Assembly (NCBI GenBank): GCA_019059635.1
Contig: JAGVRJ010000002.1
Coordinates: 806,001-870,000 of the forward strand
Direction: 5' to 3'
Length of the DNA: 64,000 nt
From: Proales similis
Taxonomy: Eukaryota; Rotifera; Eurotatoria; Ploima; Proalidae
How positions within the stretch are numbered: position 1 is the stretch's first letter; each line of letters begins with the position of its first letter. Below, piece after piece: positions 1,595 through 41,900 of the stretch. The position numbers and the translations under genes were made by a program. The notes under the pieces are model-generated. The model was not told the DNA's origin. It saw only the letters and a program-made list of their open reading frames with translations, and searched no databases.

Positions 1595-2110
1595 TTCGGT
1601 TCCTTAGTTTTTTTCGGGTCGGCTTCTCTTATGATAAAGTAGACGATGTTCTCAATGTCTCAGCTCGATATGTGTGAATACGATGCTGTTCAAAACGACT
1701 GAAAACGAAAACCTAATGTTAGTGCTTGTTGGACCATGCATGTACTCGCATTATACCATGTCCGCAATTCTATCATTTCCTAAATGGCGACCGGGAAAAA
1801 GGATGATTAAATGACGACCCGCGATATATAATCGACATATAAATGAAACTTTAAACGAAAAGTATTTTAATGAGAGGAGAATTAATTGATCAAAAGGTAA
1901 TTAATATATCAAACGCGATGTATTAATAATCATGAAATAAAGTATAAGACGTAAAATTAAATTAAAACAATAAAAAAAGGCTACTATGATCTAAATCGGC
2001 TGAAATAAAAAATGAATATGAGGCCTAACCTCTTTAATTATTAAATGATAGTTAAGAGTTTTTGAAAGAAAATTGAACAAAATGCACAACTAACGCGACG
2101 TTTGTTGTAT
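1595..2110. other. Intergenic AT-rich spacer, SUMO 5' side
   Basis: AT-rich DNA between the SUMO start and the U6atac promoter. It should contain the SUMO promoter. I see no open frame, RNA gene or repeat here. Confidence 0.6.
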
Positions 2111-2170
2111 AGATGGCGCTTGACGGTGCACTACCATTCATTAGCGCCGAAGTGGCATCACCTATATAAA
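2111..2170 (+). promoter_or_regulatory. Pol III type-3 (snRNA-like) promoter of U6atac
   Basis: TATATAAA at 2163-2170 lies 24-31 bp before the predicted +1 G at 2194, the spacing used by U6-class promoters. A TACCATT-containing stretch from 2132 (about -62) is where a proximal sequence element should lie. AGATGGCGCT at 2111-2120 (-83 to -74) recurs in inverted orientation at the same distance from the RNase MRP RNA gene in this window. The TATA assignment is strong; the roles of the other two blocks are inference. Confidence 0.7.
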
Positions 2171-2193
2171 CGAAGAGCTCTCTAGTAAACATC

Positions 2194-2316
2194 GTGTCTA
2201 ATGAAAGGAGAGATGGTTAGCACTCCCCTTGACAAGGACGGATTAGATCTGCGGGTCTAAAATATTAAAAAGCGGTCCTGGGCACACCCTGAATAAGGGA
2301 CACTTGACCGCTATTT
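2194..2316 (+). ncRNA. RNU6ATAC: U6atac snRNA of the minor (U12-type) spliceosome
   Basis: The 5' half is almost identical to the U6atac I know from human: GTGT start, ATGAAAGGAGAGA, then GGTTAGCACTCCCC and TTGACAAGGA. This covers the 5' splice-site pairing segment, the catalytic AGC and the U4atac pairing region. Downstream, TTAGAT can pair with GTCTAA as the internal stem-loop. AGCGGTC (2271-2277) pairs with GACCGCT (2306-2312), enclosing CCCT/AGGG, as the 3' hairpin. A T6 run follows. Length is about 123 nt, near the usual 125. The sequence departs from ordinary U6 (no ACAGAGA), so it is not a U6 copy. It implies that the organism keeps U12-dependent splicing. Confidence 0.95.
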
Positions 2317-2319
2317 TTT
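2314..2319 (+). terminator. Pol III terminator of U6atac
   Basis: Six consecutive T residues follow directly after the 3' hairpin, the standard RNA polymerase III stop signal. Confidence 0.85.
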
Positions 2320-2467
2320 CCTCCTTACTTATTCACCTTGTTAAAAATAAAATCACAATGATTTACATTTTGCATGGTGCTGTGTATAATTTTTAATTTT
2401 CGAAGTTTGGTTGCTTTATTAACTGAGCAAAATCTCTAAGATCGCATTTTTATCGAACAGTGAATCA

Positions 2468-3661
2468 ATGTCAAATCTGCGTCAGATTCCAATTACTTGC
2501 AGTGGGCACACCCGCCCTGTTGTGGATCTTCGCTTTAGTGATGTCACTCCATACGGATACTTTATAATCAGTGCATGCAAAGGTAGGCGAATGTATTGCA
2601 CGCGCAGATTTCTGGTCTCTTGAACTGATTCTTAGATGGAAAGCCGATGCTAAGAGAGGGTGATACTGGTGACTGGATCGGAACATATGAGGGCCACAAA
2701 GGTTATACCTCACATTTTAAACCACTTGAACCTCTTGATTCCAACCCAGTAAACAGGTGCTGTTTGGGGAGCCACATTAAATCGAGAAGCCACCAAAGCA
2801 GCCACGGCCGCTGCCGATTTTACTGCGTAAGCCACAGCGCATTAATTTCTCGCATAGGCAGTTTAAATGCAAACAGAAGGAAATAAGTAAAATCTGGAAC
2901 GCGGTTGAGGGCCAAGAAATTCACTCATTTGCACATCGACACATTGTTAAGAGTGTCGATTTCTCGCAAGATTCTAGCCGACTAGCGACTGGATGCAATG
3001 ATAAGCATTTGAGAATTTATGACCTCAGCAATTATGACACTGAGCCGATTGTGTTCACAGGACATACTTCAAACATAAAAAAGTGTCTTCTCTCACACGA
3101 TTTAAAGCGTTTGTTCAGCATATCAGACGACAAGACACTTCGAATGTGGGATGCTTCAAACGGCCATGAACTCAAGCAGCTCAAGTTTGATTCTGAGCCA
3201 TCCAGTATTGAGATATCGAAAGATGGCAACAGCCTGATCGCAGCTGTGGGCAAAATGGTCAACATCTACGAAAGCGAAACGCTGGAACTGAAAAAGCAAT
3301 TCGAAATACCAACATCCATGGTCACTTCGGTCTCTATCCACCCAAATAATTCAACGTTTGTTTGCTCTGGAGGAGACTTCACTCTCTACAAATACAGCAT
3401 TGACAATGGAACCGAGTTGGGTAGAGCAAATTGATTTGAATGCAGATTTTCTTCTGCCTACTGAGCTTTTTTTAATCGGCGCCAATTGTTTTAGAATCAT
3501 TCAAAGGCCATTTTGGACCCGTTCATTGTATACAGTTTTCCCCCGACGGTGAACTCTACGCAAGCGGAAGCGAAGATGGCACGCTGCGTCTGTGGCAGAA
3601 CACAATCGGCAAAACATATGGTCTCTGGAAATGCATTGAATCTAACTCTACTTCCGAATAG
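2468..3661 (+). CDS. STRAP: STRAP/UNRIP WD40 protein
   Basis: Five exons (2468-2582, 2636-2701, 2757-2826, 2888-3420, 3495-3661) join in phase to give 316 residues. The N-terminus ([12 protein letters not shown], then [16 protein letters not shown] and [15 protein letters not shown]) and the last repeats ([33 protein letters not shown]) are diagnostic of serine/threonine kinase receptor-associated protein. STRAP is a seven-bladed beta-propeller that joins the SMN complex for snRNP assembly and binds UNR and TGF-beta receptor components. The human protein is about 350 residues; the acidic C-terminal tail is mostly missing here. A CAG acceptor-like site lies 7 nt before the ATG. U6atac is the upstream neighbour, which may be coincidence. 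Confidence 0.95.
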
Positions 3662-8719
<5,058 letters not shown>

Positions 8720-8991
8720 CAAGCTTTGGTTTTTCTTTTTTTATTTGCAATTAGCTTTAATGCGCATCCCGTCTGCAGCTGGTCAATTTTTGACTAGCGC
8801 GCTTTGAAATGGATTCTTTTATTTGGTTATCATTTTTTTAACAGCTGTTCATCTGGCCAACGGATTTAATCAATATTAACAGCTAATAAACTAATGAAGA
8901 AAGCAAAGCTCCAAGGTCTACTCACTCGATTAGGAAACATTTTATTGATCGAAACCGACACAGATAAAGGACAGAATTTAAAGAAGAATTT

Positions 8992-10900
8992 TTAATCGAT
9001 CAAATTATCGCGGCTTTTTTCTAAAACCCTTTGAAGGCGTTTGTGCTCTTTTTCGTGATTCTCGAGCTGAAATTTGTCTTCTTTGACCTTTTCTCTATGG
9101 CTGAGCAGCTTCAAGTAAACGTCTTCCCTCTCCGCCTGGTGTCTATCTAATTTTGCCTTTTCGCGCAATATCCTCTGCTCAAGGTCCTGCTCTTGGGCAT
9201 GCGCCTTGGCAATCATTTCCTTTATTTGGGCGGCGTTCTGCTTCTTGAGCTCGTTGAACTCGTCTTGAAGTTTGCGCAGATCGTTGTCCTGCTTCCGTCG
9301 CAGACTCTCTGCTTCTTTCACCGTTCTGTACAAATCCTTTTCGAGCTCGTCGTCCTTCTGCACCAGCCGCTGGAAATGCTTTAAATGATCTTCATGCTCT
9401 CTCAGCTGGAGTTGACTCTGCTTGTGCGACGCTTTCGCTTTAAATATTCGCTCGTGCTCTTGGTTCTTCTGCGTTCGCTCGCTCGCAAGCTGTGATTGCA
9501 GTGCACTTCTTCGCTCAGTTATTTCACTGATTTTCTTTTCGATCTCGCGTGCTCTCGCCTCTTGCTCGGCAATCTGGGCCGCTTCGTTCAGCATGTGCTG
9601 TTTATTGTAAATTGTTTCCAGCCGGTTGCGCGTGTCAACCATTCTTCTGCTTGCTTCTCTTTGCTTCAGCGACCAGTGTGCTCGTTCCTGATCCGACTCC
9701 ATTGACAAACGCCGCCGAGTCAAGTCGTGCATTTTCACGTAGCCGTTCGTTTTGCTTTATGTTCGACGACAATTAGTTGAAGAGCAAAATGAATTCGAAG
9801 CAAGTCTCGAAATCTGTCGACCTACGCCATTTTCTGATCCAGTTCCCTATTATCGTTCAGATCCACCTTGATTTGCTGCAGTTGATTCTCCTCGACCGCT
9901 TTTTTAAACGAGAACAAGTCATTCTTGGCTTTGATGGCCTCCATGTTGAGCGCGAGTGCTATTTCGGCCAATTCTTTCTTGACTTTGGTTTCCTCTTCCT
10001 CTTTGCGTCTGAGCTTTTGCTGATATTCACTCTGCAAGGTGTCCAATTCGGTCTGCATCAAATCGAGCTCGTTCATTTTGGCCCGGTACTGTCGAGACAA
10101 GTCGTTGCAGACCAGCAATGTCTTTCGCTCTTTGTCTTTTGTTTGAGTCAGATTCTCCAAATTTCTCGTCTTTCTCTCTTTTGTTTTCTTCCAACACAAA
10201 CACGTTTCAAAGTTCTGTCCGTAATCGTTTCAATTTTTACTGAAAGCACATACCTTCTCGTTCAGCAACGCATTCTCAACCTCAAGCGCCTGCCTCTCTT
10301 CAAGGTTTTTGGCCAAATTCTTTTCCGAGTCAAGTCGACGTTTCGTGATCGCTTTTGATTATTCAAACGTTTAAACTCAAATATGCAAATGCCCGCCTAT
10401 CTCACTCACATTTGTCAAAAGTTCGAACTGCCGAGCGAATCTGCTGCTGCTCTTTTTTCACGTCTCCTTCTTGCCGTTTAAGAGCGCGTTCTTGTTGCTT
10501 GCTTCTTATCATTTGCTCTTCGATCAGTCGCATGTGTCTCTCTTTCTCCTTGTTGCGTTCAGATTCAAGAGCTGCGACGTCCACCGAAGAGAATGCCAGG
10601 CCTATTTGTGATGGAGAGGAAGAAGAAATCGATTTTGACTTTTGAAGTTGACGTTGCTTTAAATTGGCCCTGTGAATGGCCTCTTGAGTCTCAACGTAGC
10701 CATCTTTGGTTATAAAGCGGCCGAATTTCCTTTTTTTGGTTTTAAATTAATTTGCCGGCATTTATCACGCAATCAAAGTCAACTCACTTTAAAAAGTCGG
10801 CGTATGATGTCAAATTCTCATCGTCGTAAGTGTAAATGCTGGACGAGGCGAGCAGCTGATATCGATTTTGCAGAAGGTTTCGATTAGAGTAAACGGCCAT
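8992..10900 (-). CDS. Long coiled-coil protein, probably cilium/flagellum associated
   Basis: Exons read on the minus strand 10900-10788, 10729-10410, 10351-10254, 10187-9826 and 9754-8992 keep phase and encode 551 residues. A short N-terminal part (MAVYSNRNLLQNRYQLLASS) precedes KKFGRFITKDGYVETQEA. Nearly all the rest is Glu/Lys/Arg/Gln-rich heptad sequence without Pro or Gly, a continuous coiled coil. Length and composition resemble CFAP/CCDC axonemal proteins, but I do not recognise the family. All four of its introns end in AAG. It is tail-to-tail with CaMKK (271 bp apart). Confidence 0.75.
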
Positions 10901-11234
10901 GGTGCGTAACGGCGCGTTTTAATTTCCCAAGCAGATCCTTCAAACGCAACGCTTGGCTTAGAATTGAGTGAAAAGCTAATTAGAAACGGTTTAGAAATAG
11001 TTGCCACGGTAACCTTTTCTAAAACGCATTGGTGTGTGTTGACGTCCCTGCGTGTAATAGTGTTGAAGCTCGCTCTCTTATTTCAAGAGGGGGGTTTGGC
11101 CGCGTCGCCTACCCTTTTGCTTCTCGTCTTGGCTGCCGCTCAAGCAGCACAAACAACTCTGGGCGGTAAATAGAAAGAATTTATTGGAAACTTTTTCTAT
11201 CTGAATTTAAAACAAGACGAACAAGTAGAACAAT
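10901..11234. other. Spacer between coiled-coil gene and helicase
   Basis: Both flanking genes are on the minus strand, so this holds the helicase 3' UTR and the coiled-coil gene promoter. I see no other feature. Confidence 0.5.
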
Positions 11235-13412
11235 CTAATCAAAACGAATACGCTTATTGGGCGCCGAGGCTGCATCAAATTTTCGTTTGTTATTATTAAA
11301 AGATGAATCTTTGGAACGATCGCCGTTGCGGAATCCACTGCCGAAGCCGCCATCTTGTCGGCGGCCACCGAAACCACCTCCGCGGCCACGTCGATCGCCA
11401 TTTCTAAAACCACCGCCGCCGCCGCCGTTTCCATATCCACCGCGTCTATCACCATTTCGGTAGCCACCACCAGCACCACCACCGCCACCGCCGCGCTCTT
11501 CTTCGAGCTCAGGCAGTTCTGTGAGTGGCTTAAGCTCCATTGACTTGGTGTTGAACCATTTCTCTTGAATTTGGTCATCGTACTCGCTCGACACGTCGAA
11601 CACGAGCGCTTTCTTGTCCTTGGTGAAGCAGATGCGGTTTATAGCGTTCTCGGCGTTCTCCTCGCCGATAATCTTCTTCATAATCACATAGGCGAACGAT
11701 TTTCCTCTTATGTCATCCTCTGTCTTGGTCAGCATGTAAGTGGTCATGTTCTCGCGACTAGTCAGCAGCGAGCGTTGAGTGACCTTGGTGCAGCCAGAGA
11801 TTACTGCCAGAGCAGCAGCCACCGCGCTCACCGCATCCTTCTGCTTGAGCACCTCTTCGGCTCCCTCTCTGAATCTTTCAATTAAATCGTCGCTGACGGA
11901 ATCGAGCGATTTAACAGCGTCGGTTGTAGACGCCTCGACAATATCTGCGCTGGTCGGCGCTCCCACTCGCTTGAACTTGATGCCTGTATTTCTCTCCAGT
12001 CCCAAAAGACCGTTCAGTTCTTGAGGCTTGTAAAAGCATACGCAAATTCCGGTGCGTCCTGCGCGCCCTGTTCGGCCAGATCGATGAACATACGACTCAT
12101 AGTCCTTGAATATGTCGGTTCTCATATGAGATTTGCAAGTGGTGCAAGTTTAGATTTAATTACCTTTGGTGGTGATACGCAAATGACGAGATCTACTTCA
12201 GGAATATCAAGTCCTCTGGCGGCCACATCGGTTGTAATGAGAACGCGATATTTTCCTTCGCGGAATTTCTAAACGTCAATCACAACAATTAGCGTTCTTA
12301 GGCTGCTCAGTAGAGAGCGTTAGGCTGCAAGTCACCTGCAAGACGAGCTCTCTCTTATCCTGGGGCACATCGCCATGGAGCACATGCGACTCTTGCTTTA
12401 TTTCCGTGCTGCAGGCCAGCTCGTCGGCGTCTTTTTTCGTCTGACAAAATATCATGGCTCGACCGTGCTTGCCGCTGTAAACTTGTAGCACACTGCCGAT
12501 TGTAGATGCTCTGTCCTGGTAGCTGCACTGAATTGCCAAATGCTCCACTGTGGTCGCTGTTTTGAGCTTTGAATCGCCGATCAAGTCGATGAATTTGAAG
12601 TTATCGCCCATATATTTCTTGGCTATTCGCTTGACCCAGGGCGGGCATGTGGCCGAAAAGAACAAAGTCTGCGCCTTGTTCGATCGTGTCTCAGTGTAGA
12701 CGTGCTTAAGAATTTCCTCCACCGAGTCCTGGAAGCCCATGTCGAGCATTCTGTCGACTTCATCAAGAACCACTTGCTCCACTTCGCTCATGTCGATTTG
12801 ATTCGAATCGATGAGGTCCTTGATACGACCTGGCGTACCGGCCAGCACATCCACTCCTTTTCGAATATCTGCCGCTTGCTTCTCGTACGGCACACCACCG
12901 TACACACAACAGGTGCGGACATTTGTGGAAATTGACTGAAAGTCATCGCCTACTTGCTTGGCTAGCTCCCTAGTCGGCTCCATAACGAGCACTTTGGGCT
13001 TCTTGCAGACAGTTCCTTTCGTTTTGTTGTTTTCCAGACGCTCGATGACCGGAATGCCGAAGGCCATTGTCTTTCCGGTACCAGTGCGCGCCTGGGCAAT
13101 CACATCTTCGCCAGATCTAATGTGCTTGAGCGTTGCAACTTGAATCGGGTAGAGGTAGCTTATTCCTTTGGCTTTCAGCTTCTCGACCATGTCGGATCTG
13201 AGATCAAAATTATCAAAGTCCCCTTGCTTCATCGCTTCTTCGGACTTGACATCGCTGATGCGCAGTTCGGCCACATCGACTTGCTTTGACTCGAACTCAC
13301 TGTTCAACTTTGGCTTACTGTGGATCACAAGCTCTTGGTCATCCGAGTCGTTTTGAGACGCGTCCGCCTGCTCGTTGTCGCTCTTCCTTTTCTTAAACTC
13401 GTTCTTTACCAT
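11235..13412 (-). CDS. DDX21: DDX21-type DEVD-box RNA helicase with GUCT domain
   Basis: Exons 13412-12336, 12268-12164 and 12104-11235 give 683 residues. An acidic/basic N-terminus (KKRKSDNEQ) precedes a full helicase core: Q motif around [10 protein letters not shown], Walker [29 protein letters not shown] in place of DEAD (usual for DDX21/50), FFSATCP, then [14 protein letters not shown] and [16 protein letters not shown] domain ([13 protein letters not shown] to QEKWF) and a Gly/Arg tail with three RNGDR repeats follow. The family acts in nucleolar rRNA processing and Pol I/II transcription. ATG 13412 ([10 protein letters not shown]) is chosen over an earlier ATG at 13436, which starts with an atypical hydrophobic lead. 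Confidence 0.93.
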
Positions 13413-14006
13413 TTTTGCTTGACCTATAGCCACCATTACAAATATAAATTCTAAAACCAAACAGTTGTTAAACAATCAAATGATCAAATGACGAAGCCGG
13501 TAGACAAGGCCAGCAACTGAGTAGACTGAGCCAGTCGATTTACGCTAGACGGCCTCGTGGCGCATGCTGCCGCGCTTTCGCCGATTCGTTGTTATCTTCA
13601 ACAGCATGCTCTCTTCGACTCGGTCCTCGTTTCGCTCTCGTCTCTCTTTCAAATCCATGTGCGCGCGATTGCATATCGCTTCTAATCGCTGCTCAAATTG
13701 TCCTGTTCGATGTTCAACTTTGCATTGTCTCGTTGTCTGTTTGCGCATTTGAATCGTTCTGGCATCAAATCGAAATCTTCTTCTCTTCAATCGCTTTGAG
13801 TAAATGTCTAAACGCTGAAACTTGCCAACGTGACGCCCTAACTTGGCATTCTGATTCCGTTCTAATTTTCAATCCAGTTTTACGCCGTGCACGTGACCTC
13901 AAGCCAGCGCACACAGAATAATGCTTTCACTTCATAATTTAAGAGATTTGTGTGACGAGCATTGAAATTTTCATTGTCAAATTACTTCAAGTTTAGCCGG
14001 CAGGAA
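13413..14006. other. Divergent promoter region, helicase and HBS1/SKI7
   Basis: Head-to-head spacer of about 590 bp. Short open frames exist on both strands (for example minus-strand 13545-13790, Arg-rich) but lack family resemblance. It probably holds both promoters. Confidence 0.5.
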
Positions 14007-15806
14007 ATGTCGAGGCATCGAAACATGCGCAAAGTGTCGTTCGGGGACGACGGTAAATTGCCTTATTTGTTGCTTATTTCGATCACCTAGCCAAACGAGC
14101 TGTTTTACTCTTTGTTCAGACTACGATGACGACTTTGGACAGTCTTACGATGACAAATACGCCATATCGCCCGGAACTTGTAAGCAACAAACTGGACAGC
14201 ATGATTCATTTCAATAGCTTAACGATCGATTTATCTCATTAGCGGAGATGTACATCTACAATCGAGGAAATATTCAAAACATGTCGGAATTTCTGAAAAT
14301 AGACGAGGACGAAGATGGCGAACTGGCAGCGGCCAAAAAGGAGCCGAAAGCACCGCAGGCGCCTGTTGACGAGCCCTCCCAGGCAAATCGCTCAAAGCTG
14401 AAGATAGTCGACGAGGATTTCATGTTTCAAATGGACAAACGTAAGAGCAAAGATGTTTACTCGTTCAGCAGCATTCTTGAAAAGTCCATTTAAACATTCA
14501 AGTGGAGCCGATAAAGATCGGAGGCCAATCGAAACCAGGTAATCTTGGCTTCTTTTGTATTCTGTTCATTTTTCATTCAACCTTGTTCTTTGTTCTGATT
14601 CTTTTTCGTTTCCTCCTTGCGCTTAAGCGTGTGAGTGTGTGCTTCGACTTTGCCCGCTTGTTTGAGATTAGTACTAATTTTCACCTGGCAAGGTAAGATG
14701 ATCTTGAAAGTCTTTTACAAAGCCGTCGATTCACGTTCGAGGGTGACAACGAGCTTGGAGCCAAGTTTAATCGTCGAGGCGCGAATGAAGATGAAAGAGA
14801 AGAAGAAGATGAAGAGAATGAAGAGTTTGACTTGAACGCGTTGGCGATGAAATATCAAAAAGGCGTTGAGCAGCCGGCAAAGCAGCCGATGGCGAACAAA
14901 TCTCTCGAGCAGCTGAAGAGTGATGAGCACATGGCCAGTTCAATAGATCGACTCATTGACAGCTTTTTCTCCGAATCTAAACCTCAACAGCATAAATCAG
15001 AGCAGTCGACTCAGGAAGAAGGACTCAGAGCGCTTTCGCTCAGCGACTTGGCCAATCAGTATCTGAGTCAGCAAACACCAAAGAGTTCAGTTAATGACGC
15101 GACTGATTCAAATCTCTCCGAGCTGATTGAGACTGAGTTTTGCGAACAGTTCAGCAAGAGCTTCGGCCAGCTAAGTGATCAAGCCGTTTCGTTTCAGGGA
15201 ATCAATCTAACCGACGAGAATCTCTTTCTCTCTCGACAATCACTAGAACTCAAGTCGCAAATCGATATGGCCTCCTCAGCCAACTCGTCTATCGCCTCTT
15301 CGTGGCAAAATACGACTCTACGAGAGCAGAAAAAGTTCCAGCTCATCCCTCCTGAGCCTTTAAAAGCCAGCGACTGCTTGTTCAATTTGGCAATCAATCC
15401 CTCATGGAGTCGATTTCTTGAGGTTGAGTTCGAGTTTGATGAATGCAACCTAGGCGAGAGTGAACAGCAAGACAAGTTCGATTTGAAAAAACAATATGAG
15501 CTTCAAAAGCCCAGTTCTCATCGACGCTGTCTGGTTATCGATTCGCCTGAGAGGGGCAAGAAGCGTTCAATTAGCTCCAAACTGCTTATTTCCCATTCAT
15601 TCTCGCCGGTCCATGTGAGCTCAATATCGTCATCGGCTGCTTCTGCTGCTGCTTCTTCTTCTGCTGGGGGTCTTGTGAGCAAAAAAGGCAAACGACCGAA
15701 GCGTGCGGGTCATGTAGAAAAGATCAAAGCGTTTGACTTTTCAATTCCGTCACCTGACGACGTCGTGTTTGCCAAGCAAAAGCTCGCCTTTAAGAGATTA
15801 AAGTGA
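14007..15806 (+). CDS. SKI7-like exosome adaptor (short splice form of the HBS1 locus)
   Basis: The same first four exons can join a long terminal exon, 14723-15806, giving 469 residues. The exon starts after an ACAAAG acceptor and needs donor phase 2, exactly like the first GTPase exon at 16214, so the two 3' ends are interchangeable. The exon is Ser/Gln/Glu-rich and mostly disordered, has spaced hydrophobic patches ([20 protein letters not shown]) and ends [18 protein letters not shown]. The FDF-PSPDD ending matches the C-terminus of the short human HBS1L form that bridges the exosome and the SKI complex. A TGA stop and AATAAA at 15848-15853 give it its own 3' end. No RNA evidence is available; the phase match and motif are the support. 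Confidence 0.8.
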
Positions 15807-17745
15807 CTCCACACCAACATCAACATCAAGTATCATAGATCGAAACGAATAAAAAGAAATCACTTCTTACTCGTCTCTCTTGCAGTCATCGCATTTGAAT
15901 GATTTGATTACTCAAACTCTTACCGTCAAACGCTTCTTCTAACCTCATTCTTAAGCAGTTTTGTCAAGCGGGACTCCAAAAACGGCCGTTCAAATCAGCC
16001 AGAGTAAATAGAATGAAATTTTTTATTCCTCTATACAGCCGACTGGTAACGATTAGCAAAATAGCGCCCAATCGCGATAGCTCAGGCACAAGAGTCAAGA
16101 CGAGCAAGCAACAAACTGAGACAAAAACGGGCGAAATTAAACTTGAGTAAATGCTCTGTTCTAATTCGGTCACAAGACTGGCATGTGTTAGATAAGAGGT
16201 GCATTCTATTCAGAGTTGATAGAGAAAAGCTGTTGATGCAATACGCAGAGCATACGAAAGGAAAAGATGTGATTAACTTGGTGGTCATAGGACACGTAGA
16301 CGCCGGTATGGGCCAAGTTTCGAATCTTCCAGTCTGTCGACCAGTAACCCTCTGGTGCGCTTTCTTTAGGCAAGAGCACCATTATGGGCCATCTGCTCTT
16401 CCAGCTGGGCCAAGTGAGTAGCAAACAAATGCACAAGTACAAGCAAGAGTCGCAAAAAATGGGCAAAAGCTCGTTTGCCTTTGCCTGGGTTCTAGACGAG
16501 ACAGAGGAGGAGCGGTCACGCGGTGTGACCATCGATCTTGCGAATGTGAAATTTGAAACCTCTAAAAAGGTCATTTATCTGATGGACGCGCCAGGCCACA
16601 AGGATTTTATACCGAACATGATCACGGGCACTGCCCAAGCTGAATCTGCCATTCTGGTCATAAACAGCGTGAAGGGCGAGTTCGAGAGCGGTTTCGAAGC
16701 CGGCGGACAAACTCGAGAGCATTCCATGCTCGCCAAGTCACTTGGCGTCTCTCAATTGATTGTGGCGGTCAACAAGCTGGACATGTGCGATTGGTCGCGT
16801 GATCGATTCGACGAGATCTGCCAGAAGCTGGGCAATTTTCTCATCAAAAAAGTCGGCTTTAAGGAGTCTGACATCTTATTTGTGCCTTGTAGTGGCCTAG
16901 TCGGCGAGAATCTCACTACCAAGTCGAGCGCGCCCACACTTGTCAGCTGGTACAATGAAAATCTTCAAAGTAAAAGTGTGAAGGGCGGAGAGACACTTTT
17001 AGGAGCCATTGACTCTCTTCGACCAGCTGAGCGCTCAATCGACAAGCCACTTCGCTTTTGTGTGAGTGACATTTTCAAAAGCTCGCAGACCGGTGGCATG
17101 TCGGTGGCAGGCAAGGTTGAAGCTGGCTGCGTCAAGCCGGGAGATAAAATCTGTATTCTGCCTTCGAACCAAACTAGCTACATCAAGTTCATGACTGATC
17201 CAGAAAATCAGCCGGCCAGTATTGGATTTGCAGGTACGAGACACTTGATTCGATCCAGCAGTGAACATTGAGATGAGATAAACCGCATTTAAGGCGACTC
17301 GCTCATCCTCAACGTTCCAAACATCGATCCGACTGATCTGGGACCTGGCAACTTTGTTTGTGATGCCAATTCTCCTCTAATGCCGATCACAGATCGCATT
17401 CGAGCTAGAGTGCTTCTCTTCAACCTTGAGCATCCGTTGATCAAAGGTATATCAGTCGAGTTCCATTACAAATCGCTGAACGAGTCAGCGGTGGTCAAGC
17501 GTTTGATAAGCGAGATAAACAAGAGCACCGGCGAGGTGGTGAGAGAGAGGCCTCGCTTTGTCAACAACGGAATGAGTGCCGTAGTTGAAATAAAAATCGG
17601 TCGACCAATCTGCTTGGAGCTTTTTCAAGACTTCAAAGAGCTTGGAAGGTTCATGCTCAGGCAGAAAGGCAACACGATTGCCGCCGGACAAGTGATTGAG
17701 GTAAATAACGTTAATCTCAACTCAAGAGGCAAACAAGTGTCTTAA
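14007..17745 (+). CDS. HBS1L: HBS1, ribosome-rescue GTPase (long splice form)
   Basis: Exons 14007-14052, 14120-14179, 14243-14440, 14517-14538 (a 22-nt microexon), then 16214-16305, 16370-17233 and 17294-17745; phases agree and give 577 residues. The N-terminus MSRHRNMRK followed by [18 protein letters not shown] is the conserved HBS1 N-terminal domain. The GTPase shows GHVDAGKST (split by an intron after the third Gly base), [31 protein letters not shown] and CSGL. Beta-barrel domains follow, ending [16 protein letters not shown]. With Pelota/Dom34, HBS1 enters the A site of stalled ribosomes and promotes subunit splitting. The human protein is 684 residues; the linker is shorter here. The first four exons are shared with a SKI7-like form. 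Confidence 0.95.
15807..16213 (+). other. SKI7-form 3' UTR / HBS1-form intron
   Basis: About 400 bp between the SKI7-like stop and the first GTPase exon. AATAAA at 15848-15853 is a polyadenylation signal for the short form. The segment ends in TTCTATTCAG, a good acceptor. No other feature seen. Confidence 0.6.
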
Positions 17746-17966
17746 TTAGTTCTAATCAGATTGTTCAGAAAAGTTAGAACTTTTTGATAAATCTGCCGTC
17801 AAATTGATCTGTCAATCTTATAAAGCCTTAAACTCTCAATAATCTGATTTGTTCATTCAAGTGCCGGCTTAAAAACCGGTTTGATGTGGATGTTGAGCAT
17901 TTTGCTGAAATTTTAATTGAAGATAATTAACAGTTTGTTGATTTTTTTTGTTTATTTTGCACCAAG

Positions 17967-19556
17967 TTGAGAAATGAGATGTCGCTAAAAGTCTCACTCG
18001 TATCTCATGACTTGACGCGTGAGGAGGCCATGTGTCAGTTGGCCGACTCGCTACAGCAACTGGAGAGAGTATGCGACCAAGTTTTCGAGCAAATAAACGG
18101 CTCGATTGAGAGCGCGCGAAAAAAAATCCACAGCTTTAACGATAGAGTAAAGCTGATCGATTTGAAAATAAGCAAAATAAAAGGCTCGAAAAAGGCTATT
18201 CAGATATACTCGAGCGCCAAGTACCCGATTAAATATGAGAACTTCGAAATACCGGACACAGCCGCAGACCCCGACAATTTTTACTTTTCGGACACATACG
18301 CGGACTATCGGTCCAAATTGGATGAAAAATGGAAGCATTTGTTCGTCGAAAAGGAGCAAATTCGTTCAGGTCCAGACAGTAGAGCCAGGCCCAGGAAATA
18401 CCTGACGCCCTACGCTACTTTGGATGAGATGAGTTTTAAGGAGAAACTGCAGGAATTCACCGCCAATGGTGTTTTCAAGACCGAAACGCTCGATATGAAC
18501 ATCGACGGCCTGGGCAGCATTTTAAACGATCACATCGAATCTATTTCAAGTCTTTTACTTTTTAACACGGCCCAGCATGTCTACAAGCAGTACGAAATTC
18601 GGGATCCACTTGCTGAGCTTGAGCTCAAGAAAAAGAAAGCCGCGCTCGGTCAAGAGGAGCAAAAAGATTTGTTCGACGCTCCACTTTCAATACTCAAGGG
18701 CGAACAGATGGAAGCGGCCAAACGAGAGAACATCGCTTTCAAACCGAAGCTCGGAGATGTACCGGACTTTAATGTGCCCTCATTTTTGCCAGACTTGGCC
18801 GGTGTTGCTGATATATCTTACGTAGAGGAGCTGCCTTCGATTGCGCCATCGAATCTGATCACCGACGACTTGCCAGACATTCTCCCTGAGGTCGGAGGAG
18901 CCGCCTCGAATGCTGAACTGCCACCAGATATCGCAGTTGCATCTAAATCAAGTGACATTTTGCCTTCGCCTAGTACGTCTGTTGCGGCACCCCCTCCACC
19001 GCCACCACCTCCGCCGCCACCGCCTCCGCCTTCTCTAGGATTAGAAACACCATCGGGTCCGGGAAGTGGGCCTCCTCCTCCCCCTCCTCCTCCACCTCCG
19101 CCGATGGGTGAATTAACTCCGAATTCCTCAATGCCACCTCCGCCTCCACCACCACCATCAGCTGAATCTGCAAAGGCTTCGGCTCCTGCTAGTGATGCGC
19201 GCTCTGATTTGCTGAGTCAAATTCGAAATTTCGGAGGTGACAAGTCCAAACTGAAAGGAATCGAAAACAGAAAGGCTGAGAGCAAGAAAAAGAAGCAAGA
19301 AGTCCAAGAGTCCGGCTCTGCGATAAGTGTAACGGATGAACTCAAGCGAGCACTAAAAGACAGACGAGGATTCATGGCCGGCTCAAAGAAAGATGAGAAG
19401 CCTAAGAATCCTATTCTTGAAACGCCGGTTGCCCCATCTGCTTTCGTACCAGAGCCAGTGTCAGGCGGTGGTCTGATCGATAACATATCGAAAATGATTC
19501 CTGCTCCAGCAGAAAAAGCTGATGACAGCGACGGCTCTGATTCAGATTGGGAATAA
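17967..19556 (+). CDS. WASHC1: WASH complex subunit 1
   Basis: A single uninterrupted frame of 529 residues. The N-terminal WAHD1 region reads LTREEAMCQLADSLQQLE with LIDLKISKIKGSKKAIQIYS. A central disordered part leads to two poly-proline blocks (about 18987-19160), then the WH2/V motif (RSDLLSQIRNF), a basic connector, and the acidic end DDSDGSDSDWE with the terminal Trp that contacts Arp2/3. WASH nucleates branched actin on endosomes within a pentameric complex for retromer-linked sorting. Human WASHC1 is about 465 residues. A second ATG (17979, MSLKVSLVSHDL) fits family starts better, so the first four residues may be untranslated. It lies 221 bp after HBS1 on the same strand; a T-rich tract ending CACCAAG sits just before the ATG. 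Confidence 0.95.
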   Translation: MRNEMSLKVSLVSHDLTREEAMCQLADSLQQLERVCDQVFEQINGSIESARKKIHSFNDRVKLIDLKISKIKGSKKAIQIYSSAKYPIKYENFEIPDTAADPDNFYFSDTYADYRSKLDEKWKHLFVEKEQIRSGPDSRARPRKYLTPYATLDEMSFKEKLQEFTANGVFKTETLDMNIDGLGSILNDHIESISSLLLFNTAQHVYKQYEIRDPLAELELKKKKAALGQEEQKDLFDAPLSILKGEQMEAAKRENIAFKPKLGDVPDFNVPSFLPDLAGVADISYVEELPSIAPSNLITDDLPDILPEVGGAASNAELPPDIAVASKSSDILPSPSTSVAAPPPPPPPPPPPPPPSLGLETPSGPGSGPPPPPPPPPPPMGELTPNSSMPPPPPPPPSAESAKASAPASDARSDLLSQIRNFGGDKSKLKGIENRKAESKKKKQEVQESGSAISVTDELKRALKDRRGFMAGSKKDEKPKNPILETPVAPSAFVPEPVSGGGLIDNISKMIPAPAEKADDSDGSDSDWE

Positions 19557-19788
19557 AATGCTATTTATTAAAATTAAAAAGTTTACTTAAAAAAGCCGCT
19601 CTAATAAATTGAGACAAATCAAACGTTTTGTTTGTCCTTTATCAAATAACGAAATTATCAAAGCACTCGCCAACATGTATGCAGAAAAAATTTAATTCAC
19701 ATCTGCAAAGCTTAGTAGTCATTGACATGAAATAATTCACCTGCTAAAGAGGTTGAGTTTTTCAACATTTTCAAATTAAGGGGACAAT

Positions 19789-21699
19789 ATGGAGACTCAA
19801 ACTGCTCTTAGTTTGGTCTCTGGATGCTGCTTGGCAATTTGGCTTGTGTTTGCCTCGCGATGGATTTATGATTTTGTCTACAAGCTCGTCTTACTTTGGC
19901 GAGCCAAAAGCATACCGATCATACCATTTATCGCCAACTCCCATTTAGCCGAGCCTGGTTACGGTATGAATAAGATACATGGCTCTTACGAGTCTGTTAT
20001 TTCACAGTATATTTTCCTACCCAGAACAGTACAAACTCATCAAAGAAATTTCAGAACGTTTTAAGAAAGAACCCTTTATTGTATGCTGGATTGGTTTGTA
20101 CCCATTTTTTCACGTTGATTTCGACTCGAGAAAAAAATAATTTTTCCGAAAGGAACGGTGCCATTTTGCGCGATTCACCGTGCAGAGCATCTCGACGTAA
20201 GTAATGGCAACGATGTTTATCTTAACTCTAACAAAAACCAGAATAATTTTAAGGCACTTTTCAGCAGTTCAAAACACACGAAAAAATCAATGGTGTACGA
20301 GTTTCTTCGACCTTGGCTAAAAGAGGGGCTGCTAACCAGGTACCGAGTATTAAACAGTTAAAAAGTCGAAAAGAGGCTAAAACAAAACGCCTGAACAAAA
20401 AGTTACGGCGAAAAATGGATGAGCAGAAGAAAGCTTCTGACTCCCGCGTTTCATTTTCAAATCCTGACTAAATTCCTCGAAACTATGAACGATGAGGCGA
20501 CTATAATGACGGAAATGCTCAGGAAAGAAACGGGCGAAGAGCTTGATATTTTCAAGCGGTTATCGCTAGTAACTCTCGATACGATATGTGGTAAGATTTA
20601 AATGAAAAAGACCGAAATTGAACTTGCCGAGCAATAAGCAATGTGATTAGATACTGCAATGGGAGTTGATATAGACGCCCAAAGAAATGAGTCGAATTAT
20701 GTGAAATCAGTTTTAAGGTATTTTGAATGAAAAGCATTTATACGCACCCAAGTATTCAAGTGTTTGAACAAGAATTTCAGAACTTACAACCAAAAGAATG
20801 TTTAATCCTTTAATTTGGAGCGACAAGATTTACTCGCTGACTAGTGAAGGTCGCGAGTACGCCCAGTGCCTCAAGCTCCTCAAAGAGTTCACTCGAGGTG
20901 TGATCGAAGAGCGCGCCAGGGACTTTGACCCAGGCTCGCTGGCAGGCGAGCGACGTGTCGCTTTCCTCGACCTCTTGCTCAAGGCTCGGCACGAGGACGC
21001 TTCGCTCAGCTTCGACGACATCCAAGAAGAGGTGGACACGTTCATGTTCGAGGGCCATGACACAACCGCAGCAGCCGCCTCCTGGGCCTGCCAGCTCATC
21101 GGCTCACACCCGGACGTGCAGCGGCGTCTTCACGACGAGGTCGATGCGGTGCTTGGCCAGACCGAGAGGCCTCTCTGCGACGACGACCTAAAGCAGCTCA
21201 AATACCTCGAGTGTGTGATCAAGGAGACGTTAAGGCTTTTTCCCTCCGTTCCTTATTTTGGTAGAATCCTAACCGAAGACGCTGAGATCGGTAAATTTTA
21301 AAGTATAAACCTAGCAGAATGCTTCTATCTTTAATATCAATTTTTGCAGGGGGATTTAAATTGAAAAGAGGAATGATGGTAACTGTACTGACTTTAATGG
21401 TCCATCGACAAGAAGACTACTTCCCCGAGCCAGACAAGTTCGACCCAGACCGTTTTCTGCCCGAAAACTCGAATGGTCGGCATCCATTCGCCTTTATCCC
21501 TTTCTCTGCCGGCAGACGCAACTGCATCGGACAGCGGTTCGCCATGATGGAGCTCAAGGTCATTCTCGCTTCTTTGTTGCGATGTTTCACAATCGAGGCC
21601 ACTCGATCCATAGATAAGCTTGAACCATCAGCCGAACTTATTCTGAGGCCAACCAAAGGAGTTTGGGTTTATCTAAGAGAAAGAAAATCACCGGAATGA
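19789..21699 (+). CDS. Cytochrome P450, CYP4-like
   Basis: Eight exons in phase (19789-19963, 20025-20093, 20153-20196, 20254-20339, 20403-20590, 20651-20717, 20773-21290, 21350-21699) give 498 residues, a full-length P450. An N-terminal hydrophobic anchor (LVSGCCLAIWLVFASRWIY) points to the ER membrane. The C-helix reads WMSRRKLLTPAFHF, the I-helix EVDTFMFEGHDTTAAAASW (the Glu before the oxygen-activating Thr is typical of CYP4), the K-helix ETLR, then PDKFDPDRFLPEN and the heme loop PFSAGRRNCIGQRFA with the Cys ligand. CYP4 enzymes omega-hydroxylate fatty acids and related lipids; the substrate here is unknown. The CYP4V-like subclass is a guess. Confidence 0.93.
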
Positions 21700-21965
21700 A
21701 TTCTTGCGAAATGATTGAGTTCAAGTTCAAGCTTGAAAATTACAAGTATAATAAATGCTTATAATTGATTCATTTTTAAAATGAACGATAGTTCCTTGAT
21801 TTTCTTGAGCATCTTTTTTCTGTTGTTTGATACATCTACAATTCGCTGGTTATCGAATTATCTTGTTCTGCGTCCGAACAAAAGCAAATCGATTCGGTTT
21901 ATGGCTCGTTGATTATCTTTTTCTTCTGTGATCGATCGATAGAGCTTTCAAAAACTCAAACACTG
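21700..21965. other. Spacer after the P450 gene
   Basis: P450 3' UTR (AATAAA-like near 21750) and distal upstream region of the RNase MRP RNA gene. No other feature seen. Confidence 0.5.
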
Positions 21966-22034
21966 AGCGCCATCTGTAGCTTTAGCTTGTTTGTTACCTT
22001 CGCATATTTTCGGCGCGTGCTCTCTTTTAAATAG
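21966..22034 (+). promoter_or_regulatory. Pol III type-3 promoter of RNase MRP RNA
   Basis: A TTTTAAATAG TATA-like box at 22025-22034 lies about 20-28 bp before the predicted start. TACCTTCGCATATTTT from 21995 (-58) is in the position of a proximal sequence element and shares TACC-TT with the U6atac promoter. AGCGCCATCT at 21966-21975 (-87 to -78) is the exact reverse complement of the U6atac -80 element. Confidence 0.65.
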
Positions 22035-22052: not shown

Positions 22053-22316
22053 GGGTTGTATGGTTTAATAGCTTGCTATCTGAGCTACAAAATGAACATT
22101 GTTTCATGCAGTCTTTTCAGGGGAAAGTCCCCGGACCTTGAGGTAGAGAGTACCTGACTTGAATAGGTCAAAACTCATTTTCAATGCTCATCTAATTCAG
22201 CCATGAAATAAGCTGTTGAGCGAGAATGGGCCCTTGTCGTCTATTCACAGTAATGCAAGCCCATGCTTTAATTGCCTGGGAACTCAATGGGGCTTACTAT
22301 GCGAACCATACATTTT
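22053..22316 (+). ncRNA. RMRP: RNase MRP RNA
   Basis: GGGGAAAGTCCCCGGACCT at 22120-22138 followed by AGAGAGTACC is nearly identical to the CR-I/P4 core of human RMRP and differs from nuclear RNase P RNA. TGTATGGTT (22057-22065) pairs perfectly over 9 bp with AACCATACA (22304-22312) as helix P1. ACAGTAA at about 22246 and GGGGCTTAC near the end fit CR-IV and CR-V. Total length is about 264 nt against about 267 in human. A T5 run follows. The RNA is the catalytic part of RNase MRP, which cleaves pre-rRNA at ITS1 (A3 in yeast) and some mRNAs in the nucleolus. Confidence 0.94.
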
Positions 22317-38925: not shown

Positions 38926-41900
38926 TCAGGGCGAAGATGGTTCGTCTGTAGAGCTGTCCAGCAGTTGCCGCTCGTCTGTGCCTGCTTTGCAGAACGAAGA
39001 GCCCTTTGAGGATAGACAGGAGCTGCTCGACGAGCCTTCGAACATTTGAGTTGATAGATCGAGCTCGCTCTTATCGCTCGGCTCCGGGCTCTTGGAGTCG
39101 TCGCGCTCTTTGCAGCAGCTTTGCATCGTTGGGTCGGTGTGCAGTCGCTGGTGCAGTTTGAGATGGACTAGCTGAGTAAATCTGGAGTCGCAGACTGAGC
39201 ATATGAACGGTCGATCGCCGTTGTGTAGGCGAAAGTGCGTTTTCAGGTTGGAAGTAGAAGAGAATCGCTTGCCGCATGTGGGACATGGGAACGGCTTTTC
39301 GCCCGTGTGCACCAGAATGTGTTTTTGCAAATGTGCGAGCTGAGTGAAGCCTTTGGAGCAGGCGTCACATTTGAACGGACGCTCGCCGGTGTGGACGCGC
39401 AAGTGAACTTTCAGATTCGACAGTTGGCCGAACGTTTTGTTGCACTCTTTGCACTCGTAGATAATCTTGCCGTTCTCTTTTCTCAACGGATAGGGCAAAG
39501 CTTTGTGGCCGCGAGGCATCGACCCAGAGAGGCTGCTCGAACTGCTCGAATTGGCACTGGTTCTCGACATGGTCAACGATTGATCGTTTATCTCCAATCT
39601 GACTTCTCTCGGCTCGCATTCGCTCTCTTCCTCGCTGCTGTTTGTTGTTTTGCCTAAATCACGTGACAAGTTTTAACGAACGCCTGGATAGAGTAAACAC
39701 GGAGAGAGAGAGGGCGCTTACCGTTGTCGGACACGTTCGACGAGTTGACGGTCGGGCTCGCCTTGAAACGCTTCTTGCTCGGACGCACGTGAGCTGGCCG
39801 CGATCCTCGACGTTTGCTTGCGTCCGAGTCGAGCGTCTCGCCCAGCAAACTGCTAATTGAAAACTTGCTGACCTTCGACTCTGCTGTGTTGGGCGACTTT
39901 TCGTTCACAACATCGCCAATGTTAAACACCATTCGAATGTTCTCGTACAAGGGCCTGCAGTTTCCTATTAGAAAACGAATGCCGTTATCAATATCTTTGA
40001 AATTGGAAATTTTTCTTAAACAGATCGGCCACTTACGCTTTATGTTTGACAAATAGGCCGGTGCGAACCAGCAGACAAGCGGCTCGCCGGACGCTAGCTT
40101 CCGACTGCTGACCAACTCAAGCAGACCCTGAGAGTTGCTCTCGATCAAACAGTTGAACAGTCTGGGACTGAAGTTCTGCTCGTTGGAAACAAATCGGTCA
40201 ATCTCGTTTAGGCGCTGGCTAAAGTCCATGCAGCCGAGGAAACGTTCGTTTATGAACATCTTGAAAGAAATGAAGATTGACGCGCGAACGGGCGTAGACT
40301 GTGTGTTTGCCTGCTTACCGGAAGGATGGGCGCCAAGCTATGCTTGAGCGAACATTGATTCACAATCGACTCCATGCACGTCGCAGTCACTTGAGTGCCG
40401 AGAAAACTTCCGCTGTTGAGAGCGAGCACTATGGCGCCTGAGGCGAGCTCGTTTCTACAAACTAATCGTCCGTTCTTCTGTTCAATTGACGTCAAAACAA
40501 ATTAGCAATCCGGATCGAGCTAATTGGGTCAAATGCAACGTCGCTCACTTTTTCAACTCCGCCTGGCAAATTGCTCGCGCAGCTTTTCACCGACTCGGCC
40601 TGTTGTTTCAGTGCATTCACGTAGCTGGTCAAGTAGCTGTTTAATAGAGCGCTGCTATAGCTCGAAATCAAATCGGCGTTGAACGGCACGCCGAACAGAT
40701 TCATTTTGCTTGCCGAGCTGAACAGCTCCGGAGCAGTGTTCCATTCGGCTGAGGTGGCGTTCGGTTTTCCACTTGCTTTGGTTGCTTTGACAAACGCGCT
40801 CTTCGAAGCAGCAGCAACGGCAGATTGGTCCAACTGCGTCATGTAACTGGCAGACATGAACGCCGGCAATGAGCTGTACACTCCTGTCGGTGCAGGTTGC
40901 GAGTGCTGATTGTGGTGGTGTTGATGATGATGATGGTGGTGGTGATGCTGCTGCTGTTGAGTTGGGTTGTAAACCACATTCGGATACATGATCATATCCT
41001 TGCTCTGCTGTAGTAGACAAAATAGCAATGGATTAGAAGGAGAAATCAAAGTGCAAACATCTTATCTATGAAGCTAGGCGTGATATAAAGAGTCTTAATG
41101 AAACCTCTCAAGACGAGAACGATGATGTTGAGTTTTTTTTTTCACTAAACATAAAATGAATGAGCGATTGTCGTCTTTATCTCTCACACTCTTAGCGCTA
41201 TTTAACTCACCAAAAAAAAAAGCTATTTTGAGACTGCAGCATGCCATAAAACCGTAGGGCGAAAATCGAGGAAGACGAGTATGAGGAAGGAGATGCACGT
41301 CAGAGTTGACAATCAATTGATTAGCTGCTTTATCTGAGCACTAAACGATCGCCCCTGGACATTTCTCTTTGCTTCTCCTCATCTCTTCCTCGCTCTAATC
41401 AATACTACTCTCGCTTGCGCAATTTAGATTAGCCAATCTACTCTCGGATCGTGTGTTGCAATAAAACAAAAACGTCCACCGACGGTCCACATCTGATTGT
41501 TTATCTCTCTGTCTTTTTCTTCTTTTTCGTAACACAAACACGCCAACAGACACACGCACACAATCGGACAGAAATCGAACTGATATTCGCTGACTTGTTC
41601 GGGTCGGTGTCGCACTGGATGTCGATTAGCGTAAATTGTCCACTAAAGTTGACATCAAGTCTCACATTGTTACTTTTCCTCTTAGAGCCTATTTCTGTTC
41701 ATGTCTCTCACTCAGCCTAGCTGAGGCATGCGCCACTCGCACTCTTGATCTGTCGCTTTTATTATATTTACGTGGCTAAGTTTTATTGAGGCCGGCTTGT
41801 TTGCTCGGCACTCTTTCCGACTACTCGGGCGGCTCGAAAGCGATAAAGATAGACTCTCTCAAAGCTCTTGACTAAACGCCAAAAGAAGAGAACGCCTAAT

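What the first reader, a model, noticed from the sequence alone, without database searches (positions are those of the whole stretch)
2111..22034. Shared inverted 10-bp element at about -80 of both Pol III-type RNA genes
AGATGGCGCT at 2111-2120 is 74-83 bp before the U6atac start. Its exact reverse complement at 21966-21975 is 78-87 bp before the RNase MRP RNA start. With flanks the match is TA(T/C)AGATGGCGCT. I found no other copy in 64 kb; chance predicts about 0.1 copy. Both genes also have TACC-TT near -60 and a TATA box near -27. This looks like an orientation-independent distal element for this animal's type-3 Pol III promoters. It recalls the AGRTGGCGC core bound by insect CTCF, which is an alternative reading.
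Basis: partly seen in the sequence, partly recalled or inferred. Interest (0 to 1): 0.8.

Follow-up and report, generated by a model that had tools for sequence, protein, structure and literature searches.

The report
CTCF-like element before small-RNA genes
In a tiny rotifer, many of the genes for the RNAs that run splicing share a short upstream DNA tag that looks like the heart of a CTCF binding site, and the animal's reduced CTCF-like protein has kept the four fingers that would read this tag while losing the next ones.

Summary
In detail: AGATGGCGCT occurs twice in 64 kb, 74-83 bp before U6atac and, inverted, just before RNase MRP RNA. Genome-wide the 10-mer is not over-frequent (62 copies; 70-127 expected), yet it precedes U6, one U1 and one U2 gene too; one-mismatch forms precede U2b, U4 and both U5 genes. 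At -150..-51, 9 of 15 snRNA-class genes have it with at most one mismatch; background is 9 of 2,082 windows. A de novo word search ranks it first. It is a real distal promoter element, but of Pol II- and Pol III-type genes alike, and not universal: U3b has none, and U3a, U4atac and RNase P have only weak or misplaced copies. The extended form GYA-GAT-GKC-GCT fits the triplets read by CTCF fingers 6-5-4-3; the finger-7 triplet is missing. The one clear CTCF-like protein found keeps fingers 3-6 with nearly the same contact residues and lacks 7-11, as does a Brachionus protein; a bdelloid one has 11. Best reading: a reduced CTCF is the distal activator of snRNA-class genes. Binding and activity are inferred, not shown.

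The parts
2109..2120 (+). Distal element of U6atac, ATA-GAT-GGC-GCT (CTCF-core-like; 10-mer at 2111-2120)
2130..2135 (+). Start of the proximal sequence element (ACTACC) of U6atac
   Evidence: position -64; not tested statistically
2163..2170 (+). TATA box TATATAAA of U6atac, 30 bp from the A of ACC
2194..2319 (+). U6atac snRNA gene, ending in a T run
   Evidence: Rfam RF00619, 81.3 bits
21966..21977 (-). Distal element of RNase MRP RNA, inverted; ACA-GAT-GGC-GCT on the minus strand (10-mer at 21966-21975)
21993..21998 (+). Start of the proximal sequence element (GTTACC) of RMRP
   Evidence: position -65; not tested statistically
22026..22033 (+). TATA-like box TTTAAATA of RMRP, 30 bp from the A of ACC
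22058..22310 (+). RNase MRP RNA gene
   Evidence: Rfam RF00030, 118.8 bits
22313..22317 (+). T5 run after RMRP, presumed Pol III terminator
   Evidence: sequence

Best explanation
The shared 10-mer is the core of a ~12-bp distal promoter element, consensus GYAGATGKCGCT, used by snRNA-class genes of Proales similis in either orientation, upstream of a PSE (TTACC-like near -62) and a TATA-like box (near -31). It most likely works as a binding site for the genome's reduced CTCF-like protein, whose fingers 6-5-4-3 would read the triplets GYA-GAT-GKC-GCT; bound there, it would help SNAPc and the polymerase load, as Oct-1 and ZNF143 do at the vertebrate distal element (recalled). Shown here: the element, its position and enrichment, and the reduced protein with its conserved contact residues. 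Inferred: that this protein binds the element, and that binding activates transcription.
For: Enrichment: AGATGGCGCT with at most 1 mismatch at -150..-51 in 9 of 13 genes vs 9 of 2,082 background windows; with U3a and U3b added, neither of which has it, 9 of 15. Among the 12 genes that whole-genome family searches return without use of the motif (U1 x2, U2 x2, U3 x2, U4, U5 x2, U6, U12, RNase P), 7 of 12, p about 5e-14. De novo: the 10-mer shared (within 1 mismatch) by most of 13 promoters is AGATGTCGCT, in 10 of 13; 200 random sets of 13 windows reach 4-6 and once 7. Not a common word: 62 copies vs 70-127 expected. CTCF: the base before the core is a pyrimidine in 11 of 13 promoter sites vs 20 of 57 other exact genomic sites, p 0.0014 (the U4atac site was in both groups; without it 11 of 12 vs 20 of 56, p 0.0005). 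The clear CTCF match in the genome is C13:706027 (61% identity over fingers 3-6, E 6e-45; next by E-value 4e-21, 38%); a PDB search puts CTCF chains first. Helix residues -1,2,3,6 are TGER/ESKR/DFKR/QNSL for fingers 3-6 vs TGER/ESKR/DYKR/QGTM in the human query; no finger-7 (RSDV) equivalent. CTCF core cytosine 12 is contacted by ZF4 and cytosine 2 by ZF7 (PMC10325916, passages), which agrees with the triplet register and the missing 5' triplet.
Against: Position 11 is T, not G, in U1a, U2b, U4, U12 and the weak RNase P copy (5 of 13), which vertebrate CTCF is not known to favour (recalled). At position 4 the expected G/C is no commoner than at control sites (8 of 13 vs 34 of 57, p 0.58). U3b has no copy, U3a only AGATGTCTCC at -160, U4atac only one at -236, RNase P, U1a and U12 only 2-mismatch copies. 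No binding, expression or second-species promoter data were available. The protein search admits only candidates of 0.55-1.75 times the query length, so a separate full-length CTCF in Brachionus would not have been seen.
Confidence: 0.6

Rival explanations
1. The element is a genuine snRNA distal element, but another factor binds it (another C2H2 protein, a YY1-like or a ZNF143-like one).
For: The enrichment needs no particular protein. Many other C2H2 genes exist (65 matches to the CTCF query). The G-to-T variants at position 11 fit CTCF poorly. Presence of YY1 or ZNF143 in the genome was not searched.
Against: The CTCF-like fingers 3-6 match the site triplet by triplet; YY1 needs ATGG (recalled), which the AGATGTC variants in U1a, U2b, U4 and U12 break.
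Confidence: 0.33
2. The sites are CTCF boundary or chromatin sites that flank snRNA genes and play no direct part in initiation, comparable to the CTCF site beyond the 3' box of the human U2 gene.
For: CTCF controls NELF recruitment and termination at human U2 (PMC5493778 and PMC4802788, passages).
Against: The sites are upstream, at -74 to -141 in the 12 genes that have one there; the exact motif is not over-frequent genome-wide, as one might expect of a widely used architectural site.
Confidence: 0.06
3. Chance or base-composition artefact.
For: Two copies in 64 kb alone would be weak evidence.
Against: 0 of 100 shuffles reach 2; 5 of 13 genes with an exact copy vs 0 of 2,082 background windows, p 3e-14; 10 of 13 de novo vs at most 7 in 200 random sets.
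Confidence: 0.01

Closest known systems
Vertebrate snRNA distal sequence element (octamer for Oct-1 plus SPH for ZNF143/Staf; recalled)
   Same: Upstream of the PSE, used by Pol II and Pol III snRNA-class genes, found in either orientation; here too an octamer-like TATG element lies nearby in most Pol II-type genes.
   Different: The second element is CTCF-core-like, not an SPH site, and lies mostly at -74 to -141 rather than about -220 (recalled).
CTCF core motif and CTCF zinc fingers 3-7 (PDB 5KKQ, 5T00)
   Same: Contact residues of fingers 3 and 4 identical, finger 5 differs by Y to F as in a midge; sites match core positions 5-15.
   Different: No CCA triplet for finger 7, no fingers 7-11; T at position 11 in 5 of 13 sites.
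Drosophila snRNA promoters (PSEA and PSEB 8 bp apart for Pol II; PSEA and TATA 12 bp apart for Pol III; PMC4227766, passage)
   Same: Longer PSE-to-downstream-box spacing in Pol III-type genes (30-31 vs 22-29).
   Different: Here Pol II-type genes also have a TATA-like box, and there is a distal element.
Type-3 snRNA promoters of Hymenoptera and Lepidoptera (PMC9841428, passages)
   Same: PSE plus TATA before Pol III snRNA genes such as U6 and U6atac.
   Different: The word 'distal' occurs 0 times in the main text, so no distal element is described under that name.

Membership tests
snRNA-type distal promoter element | Shared by several snRNA-class genes, upstream of the PSE, above chance | tested here: met
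   9 of 15 genes with at most 1 mismatch at -150..-51, background 9 of 2,082 windows
snRNA-type distal promoter element | Raises transcription | not testable with these tools
   no expression data
Type-3 Pol III promoter element only | Confined to Pol III genes | tested here: not met
   present before U1, U2, U4, U5, U12
CTCF core binding site | Matches core positions 5-15 (YAGRKGGCRSY, consensus recalled) | tested here: met
   fully matched in U6, U6atac, RMRP, U1b, U2a; the other promoter copies depart at one or more positions
CTCF core binding site | G at position 11 (recalled) | tested here: inconclusive
   G in 8 of 13, T in 5 of 13
CTCF core binding site | 5' CCA triplet read by finger 7 (recalled) | tested here: not met
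   0 of the 13 promoter sites have CCA there (read by eye); expected if finger 7 is lost
CTCF core binding site | Bound by CTCF in vivo | not testable with these tools
   no ChIP data
CTCF protein family (canonical) | Fingers 3-6 with conserved contact residues | tested here: met
   identical in fingers 3-4, one change in 5, three in 6 vs the human query
CTCF protein family (canonical) | Eleven-finger array including 7-11 | tested here: not met
   7 fingers in one ORF; P0001 and P0002 also 7, P0003, P0004 (Brachionus), P0005, P0007, P0008 8 with one more at the N terminus; 11 in bdelloid P0055
YY1 site | ATGG core kept in all copies (recalled) | tested here: not met
   AGATGTC in U1a, U2b, U4, U12

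The most novel reading that the evidence does not exclude
In monogonont rotifers CTCF has lost its outer fingers and has been turned from a genome organiser into a dedicated activator of snRNA-class genes, serving Pol II and Pol III promoters through a four-finger site that takes the place of the vertebrate ZNF143 site in the distal sequence element.
Probability: 0.3. Interest if true: 0.85.

Novelty: new variant of a known kind. Interest (0 to 1): 0.7.

Why it matters
snRNA distal elements and their activators are known in detail mainly in vertebrates (recalled). The papers listed by my searches (25 of 60 listed; 12 of 23; 10 of 1,179; 8 of 139; openly licensed papers only, titles and abstract starts) include none on a rotifer snRNA promoter or on a CTCF site as a distal snRNA element; the 10-mer itself gave 47 papers, 20 listed, none on snRNA promoters or CTCF by title. 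A spliceosomal-RNA promoter element read by a stripped-down CTCF would give CTCF a core gene-expression role apart from loops and insulators, and would make the question 'what is CTCF for when a genome is tiny?' testable with one protein and about a dozen promoters. It also maps U6-type promoters for rotifer gene tools.

Tried and rejected
I first took the genome for that of the mite Aculops lycopersici (32.5 Mb) because of its size; its scaffold lengths do not fit, and the Brachionus hit and the exact contig statistics showed Proales similis. Notebook entry 1 still says 'mite-size'; entry 3 corrects it.

The 62 exact sites were looked at for RNA genes. Rfam over 59 of the 62 loci plus L070 found U1 x2, U2 x2 (one of them in L070) and U4atac only (the 3 loci not given hold the two window genes and U6). 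ARAGORN found no tRNA in the 60 loci given (L066 and L067 were not given). 35 of 62 sites fall in ORFs of at least 100 aa, one of them the U1b site. Of 10 exact YGYAGATGKCGCT sites, 4 are the U1b, U2a, U4 and U6 promoters, 3 lie in such ORFs, and the last 3 (L076-L078) gave no RNA family at E up to 1. With one mismatch there are 313 sites against 212 for the reversed pattern; only 100 places were listed and I did not study the one-mismatch ones.

The family searches score only the best candidates, so gene counts are lower bounds.

The reversed-pattern control (28 copies) makes the motif look twofold enriched genome-wide; the Markov expectations (the window-only models include the two copies themselves) show that this is composition, so I do not claim genome-wide enrichment. 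The background contained the motif-bearing loci and the U2a, U6atac and RMRP promoters (conservative); leave these out. The K at position 11 was defined after seeing the variants, so the 12-of-13 figure for AGATGKCGCT with one mismatch is post hoc; the 9-of-13 figure is not. U4atac was found only because its locus carries the motif, and its copy at -236 may be chance. The U1 genes were first seen in a motif locus and then returned by an independent genome search.

One search printed U4 and RNase P in the wrong orientation; one search corrects this. I did not run a structure prediction: it would not discriminate between the explanations.

Full report
What is there. AGATGGCGCT occurs at 2111-2120 (+) and 21966-21975 (-) and nowhere else in the window; shuffles give 0.17 on average and never 2. 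Rfam gives U6atac (2194-2319) and RNase MRP RNA (22058-22310) as the only matches above cut-off in the window.

Which animal. The window lies at C2:806001-870000 of a genome of 32,716,893 bases in 15 contigs; C1 is 3,837,811 bases and C6 2,428,301. The published Proales similis assembly has 32,722,929 bases, 15 contigs, largest 3,837,811, N50 2,428,301 (PMC11954553, table passage): about 6 kb more in total, the two lengths identical. The animal is thus this monogonont rotifer (taxonomy).

Genome-wide test of the claim. The 10-mer has 62 exact copies. Markov models of order 2-5 expect 70-127, so the word is not over-frequent. Family searches returned U6 (1 gene), RNase P RNA (1), U2 (2), U1 (2), U5 (2), U4 (1), U12 (1) and U3 (2); U4atac came from Rfam on the motif loci. 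With U6atac and RMRP that is 15 genes. U11, 7SK, SRP and tRNA-Sec were not searched.

Positions (relative to the Rfam start, U3). Exact: U6 -84..-75; U6atac -83..-74; RMRP -92..-83 inverted; U1b -133..-124; U2a -136..-127; U4atac -236..-227. One mismatch: U2b -139..-130 (AGATGTCGCT), U4 -92..-83 inverted (AGATGTCGCT), U5a -102..-93 (AGATGGTGCT), U5b -140..-131 (AGATGGCGCG). Two mismatches: U1a -122..-113 and U12 -90..-81 inverted (both AGATGTCTCT), RNase P -141..-132 inverted (AGTTGTCGCT). U3a has AGATGTCTCC at -160 (3 mismatches); U3b has nothing within 2 mismatches of AGATGKCKCT from -400 to -10.

Statistics. At -150..-51, exact copies are in 5 of 13 genes against 0 of 2,082 background windows of 100 bp (p 3e-14), copies with at most one mismatch in 9 of 13 against 9 of 2,082 (p 1e-18) (before U3 was searched). 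Adding U3, 9 of 15 (p 7e-18); among the 12 genes returned by whole-genome family searches without use of the motif, 7 of 12 (p 5e-14). Without a preconceived word, the 10-mer shared within one mismatch by most of the 13 promoters is AGATGTCGCT/AGCGACATCT, in 10 of 13; 200 random sets of 13 windows of 160 bp give 4 (114 sets), 5 (78), 6 (7) or 7 (1). In one search forms of this element rank first at k = 8, 9 and 10, ahead of TATA.

The rest of the promoter. A rule-based scan places a KTTACC-like PSE start at -59 to -68 in all 15 genes, but with 0-1 mismatch in only 7 of 15 and 2-3 in 8 of 15; I did not test it against background. A TATA-like box at -29 to -35 has 0-1 mismatch in 14 of 15 (U4atac 2). 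The A(CC)-to-TATA distance is 30-31 in the four Pol III-type genes and 22-29 in the eleven Pol II-type genes (one-sided Mann-Whitney p 0.002; for U2a and U5a the rule anchors one base early, and re-anchoring leaves p 0.002). This parallels Drosophila's 12 against 8 bp (PMC4227766, passage). Polymerase class is assigned by gene identity. Within 30 bp of the 3' end T5 runs follow all four Pol III-type genes; of the other eleven only U3b has one, about 24 bp downstream. Nine of 11 Pol II-type genes have [AT]TATG[AC] (either strand) at -120..-71, 0 of 4 Pol III-type, background 299 of 4,280 windows (p 2e-9); this pattern was loosened by eye, and the stricter TTATGC gives 5 of 11 (p 5e-7). It resembles a POU/octamer site (recalled). 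Both U3 genes, found after AATTATGCAA had come up, have TTATGCAT.

Who could bind. A CTCF query finds one outstanding place, C13:706027-706368, 61% identical over fingers 3-6 (E 6e-45); the next by E-value is 4e-21 (38%), and a few shorter matches reach 49% (65 matches in all). The ORF (L081:1189-2181) has seven fingers: one like ZF2, then ZF3-6, a ~55-residue linker and two further fingers not like ZF7, then a stop; no other finger pattern is on that strand of the fetched stretch. P0004 of Brachionus calyciflorus (annotated as partial) and the unnamed P0001-P0003, P0005, P0007 and P0008 have the same plan, some with one more finger at the N terminus; P0055 of the bdelloid Didymodactylos carnosus has 11 fingers with a ZF7 of the RSD type. 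So the reduction looks real and shared by at least Proales and Brachionus. The search admits only proteins of 0.55-1.75 times the query length, so it cannot exclude a second, long CTCF in Brachionus. A review states one CTCF orthologue in rotifers (PMC10658182, passage).

Fit of protein and site. In CTCF, cytosine 12 of the core is contacted by ZF4 and cytosine 2 by ZF7 (PMC10325916, passages); ZFs 3-7 bind the core and 9-11 an upstream motif (PMC9004084, abstract passage). With that register the promoter consensus reads GYA (ZF6), GAT (ZF5), GKC (ZF4), GCT (ZF3); the assignment beyond C2 and C12 is my inference from standard C2H2 geometry. The contact residues are TGER, ESKR, DFKR, QNSL in fingers 3-6, against TGER, ESKR, DYKR, QGTM in the human query and TGER, ESKR, DFKR, QNSA in the midge P0022. 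The CCA triplet of ZF7 is absent from the 13 sites, and ZF7 is absent from the protein. The base before the core is a pyrimidine in 11 of 13 promoter sites against 20 of 57 other exact genomic sites (p 0.0014; p 0.0005 when the U4atac site, which was in both groups, is left out); position 4 shows no such difference (8 of 13 vs 34 of 57).

Against. T at position 11 in 5 of 13 sites is unexpected for CTCF (recalled); U3a, U3b and U4atac have no good copy at the usual distance, and U1a, U12 and RNase P only 2-mismatch ones; nothing shows binding or activity; no other rotifer promoter could be read.

Verdict. A site for a reduced CTCF is the best-supported identity (0.6), with another factor as main rival (0.33). 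In the passages seen, CTCF at human U2 acts at a site beyond the 3' box, in termination and NELF/P-TEFb recruitment, not at the distal element (PMC5493778, PMC4802788). In the compact annelid Dimorphilus a CTCF motif was the most abundant in open chromatin and was proposed to regulate genes rather than architecture (PMC10658182, passage), which fits the trend.

Noticed in passing
Promoters of U1a, U1b (L029), U2a (L069), U2b (L070), U3a (L087), U3b (L088), U4 (L075), U5a (L073), U5b (L074), U12 (L080), U4atac (L040) vs U6 (L035), RNase P (L068), U6atac and RMRP (window): Pol II-type snRNA genes also have TATA-like boxes; the PSE-to-TATA distance is 22-29 in them and 30-31 in Pol III-type genes.
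   Followed up: partly
-120 to -71 of the Pol II-type genes in the same loci: An octamer/POU-like [AT]TATG[AC] element in 9 of 11 Pol II-type genes and 0 of 4 Pol III-type genes.
   Followed up: partly
window 2194-2319; L040 1737-1872; L080 1501-1665: U6atac, U4atac and U12 RNA genes are present, so this very small genome seems to keep a minor spliceosome.
   Followed up: no
window 39100-39459, minus strand: A C2H2 zinc-finger stretch in a 248-aa open frame, second-best CTCF-finger match of the genome by E-value, 38% identity.
   Followed up: no
L081:1189-2181: A seven-finger CTCF derivative with the same plan as a Brachionus protein; bdelloid Didymodactylos has 11 fingers.
   Followed up: partly
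L076 350-362: An exact CGTAGATGTCGCT with no RNA family found in the 711-base stretch; the stretch begins with TGGTCACACT, which recalls Drosophila core-promoter Motif 1 (recalled).
   Followed up: no
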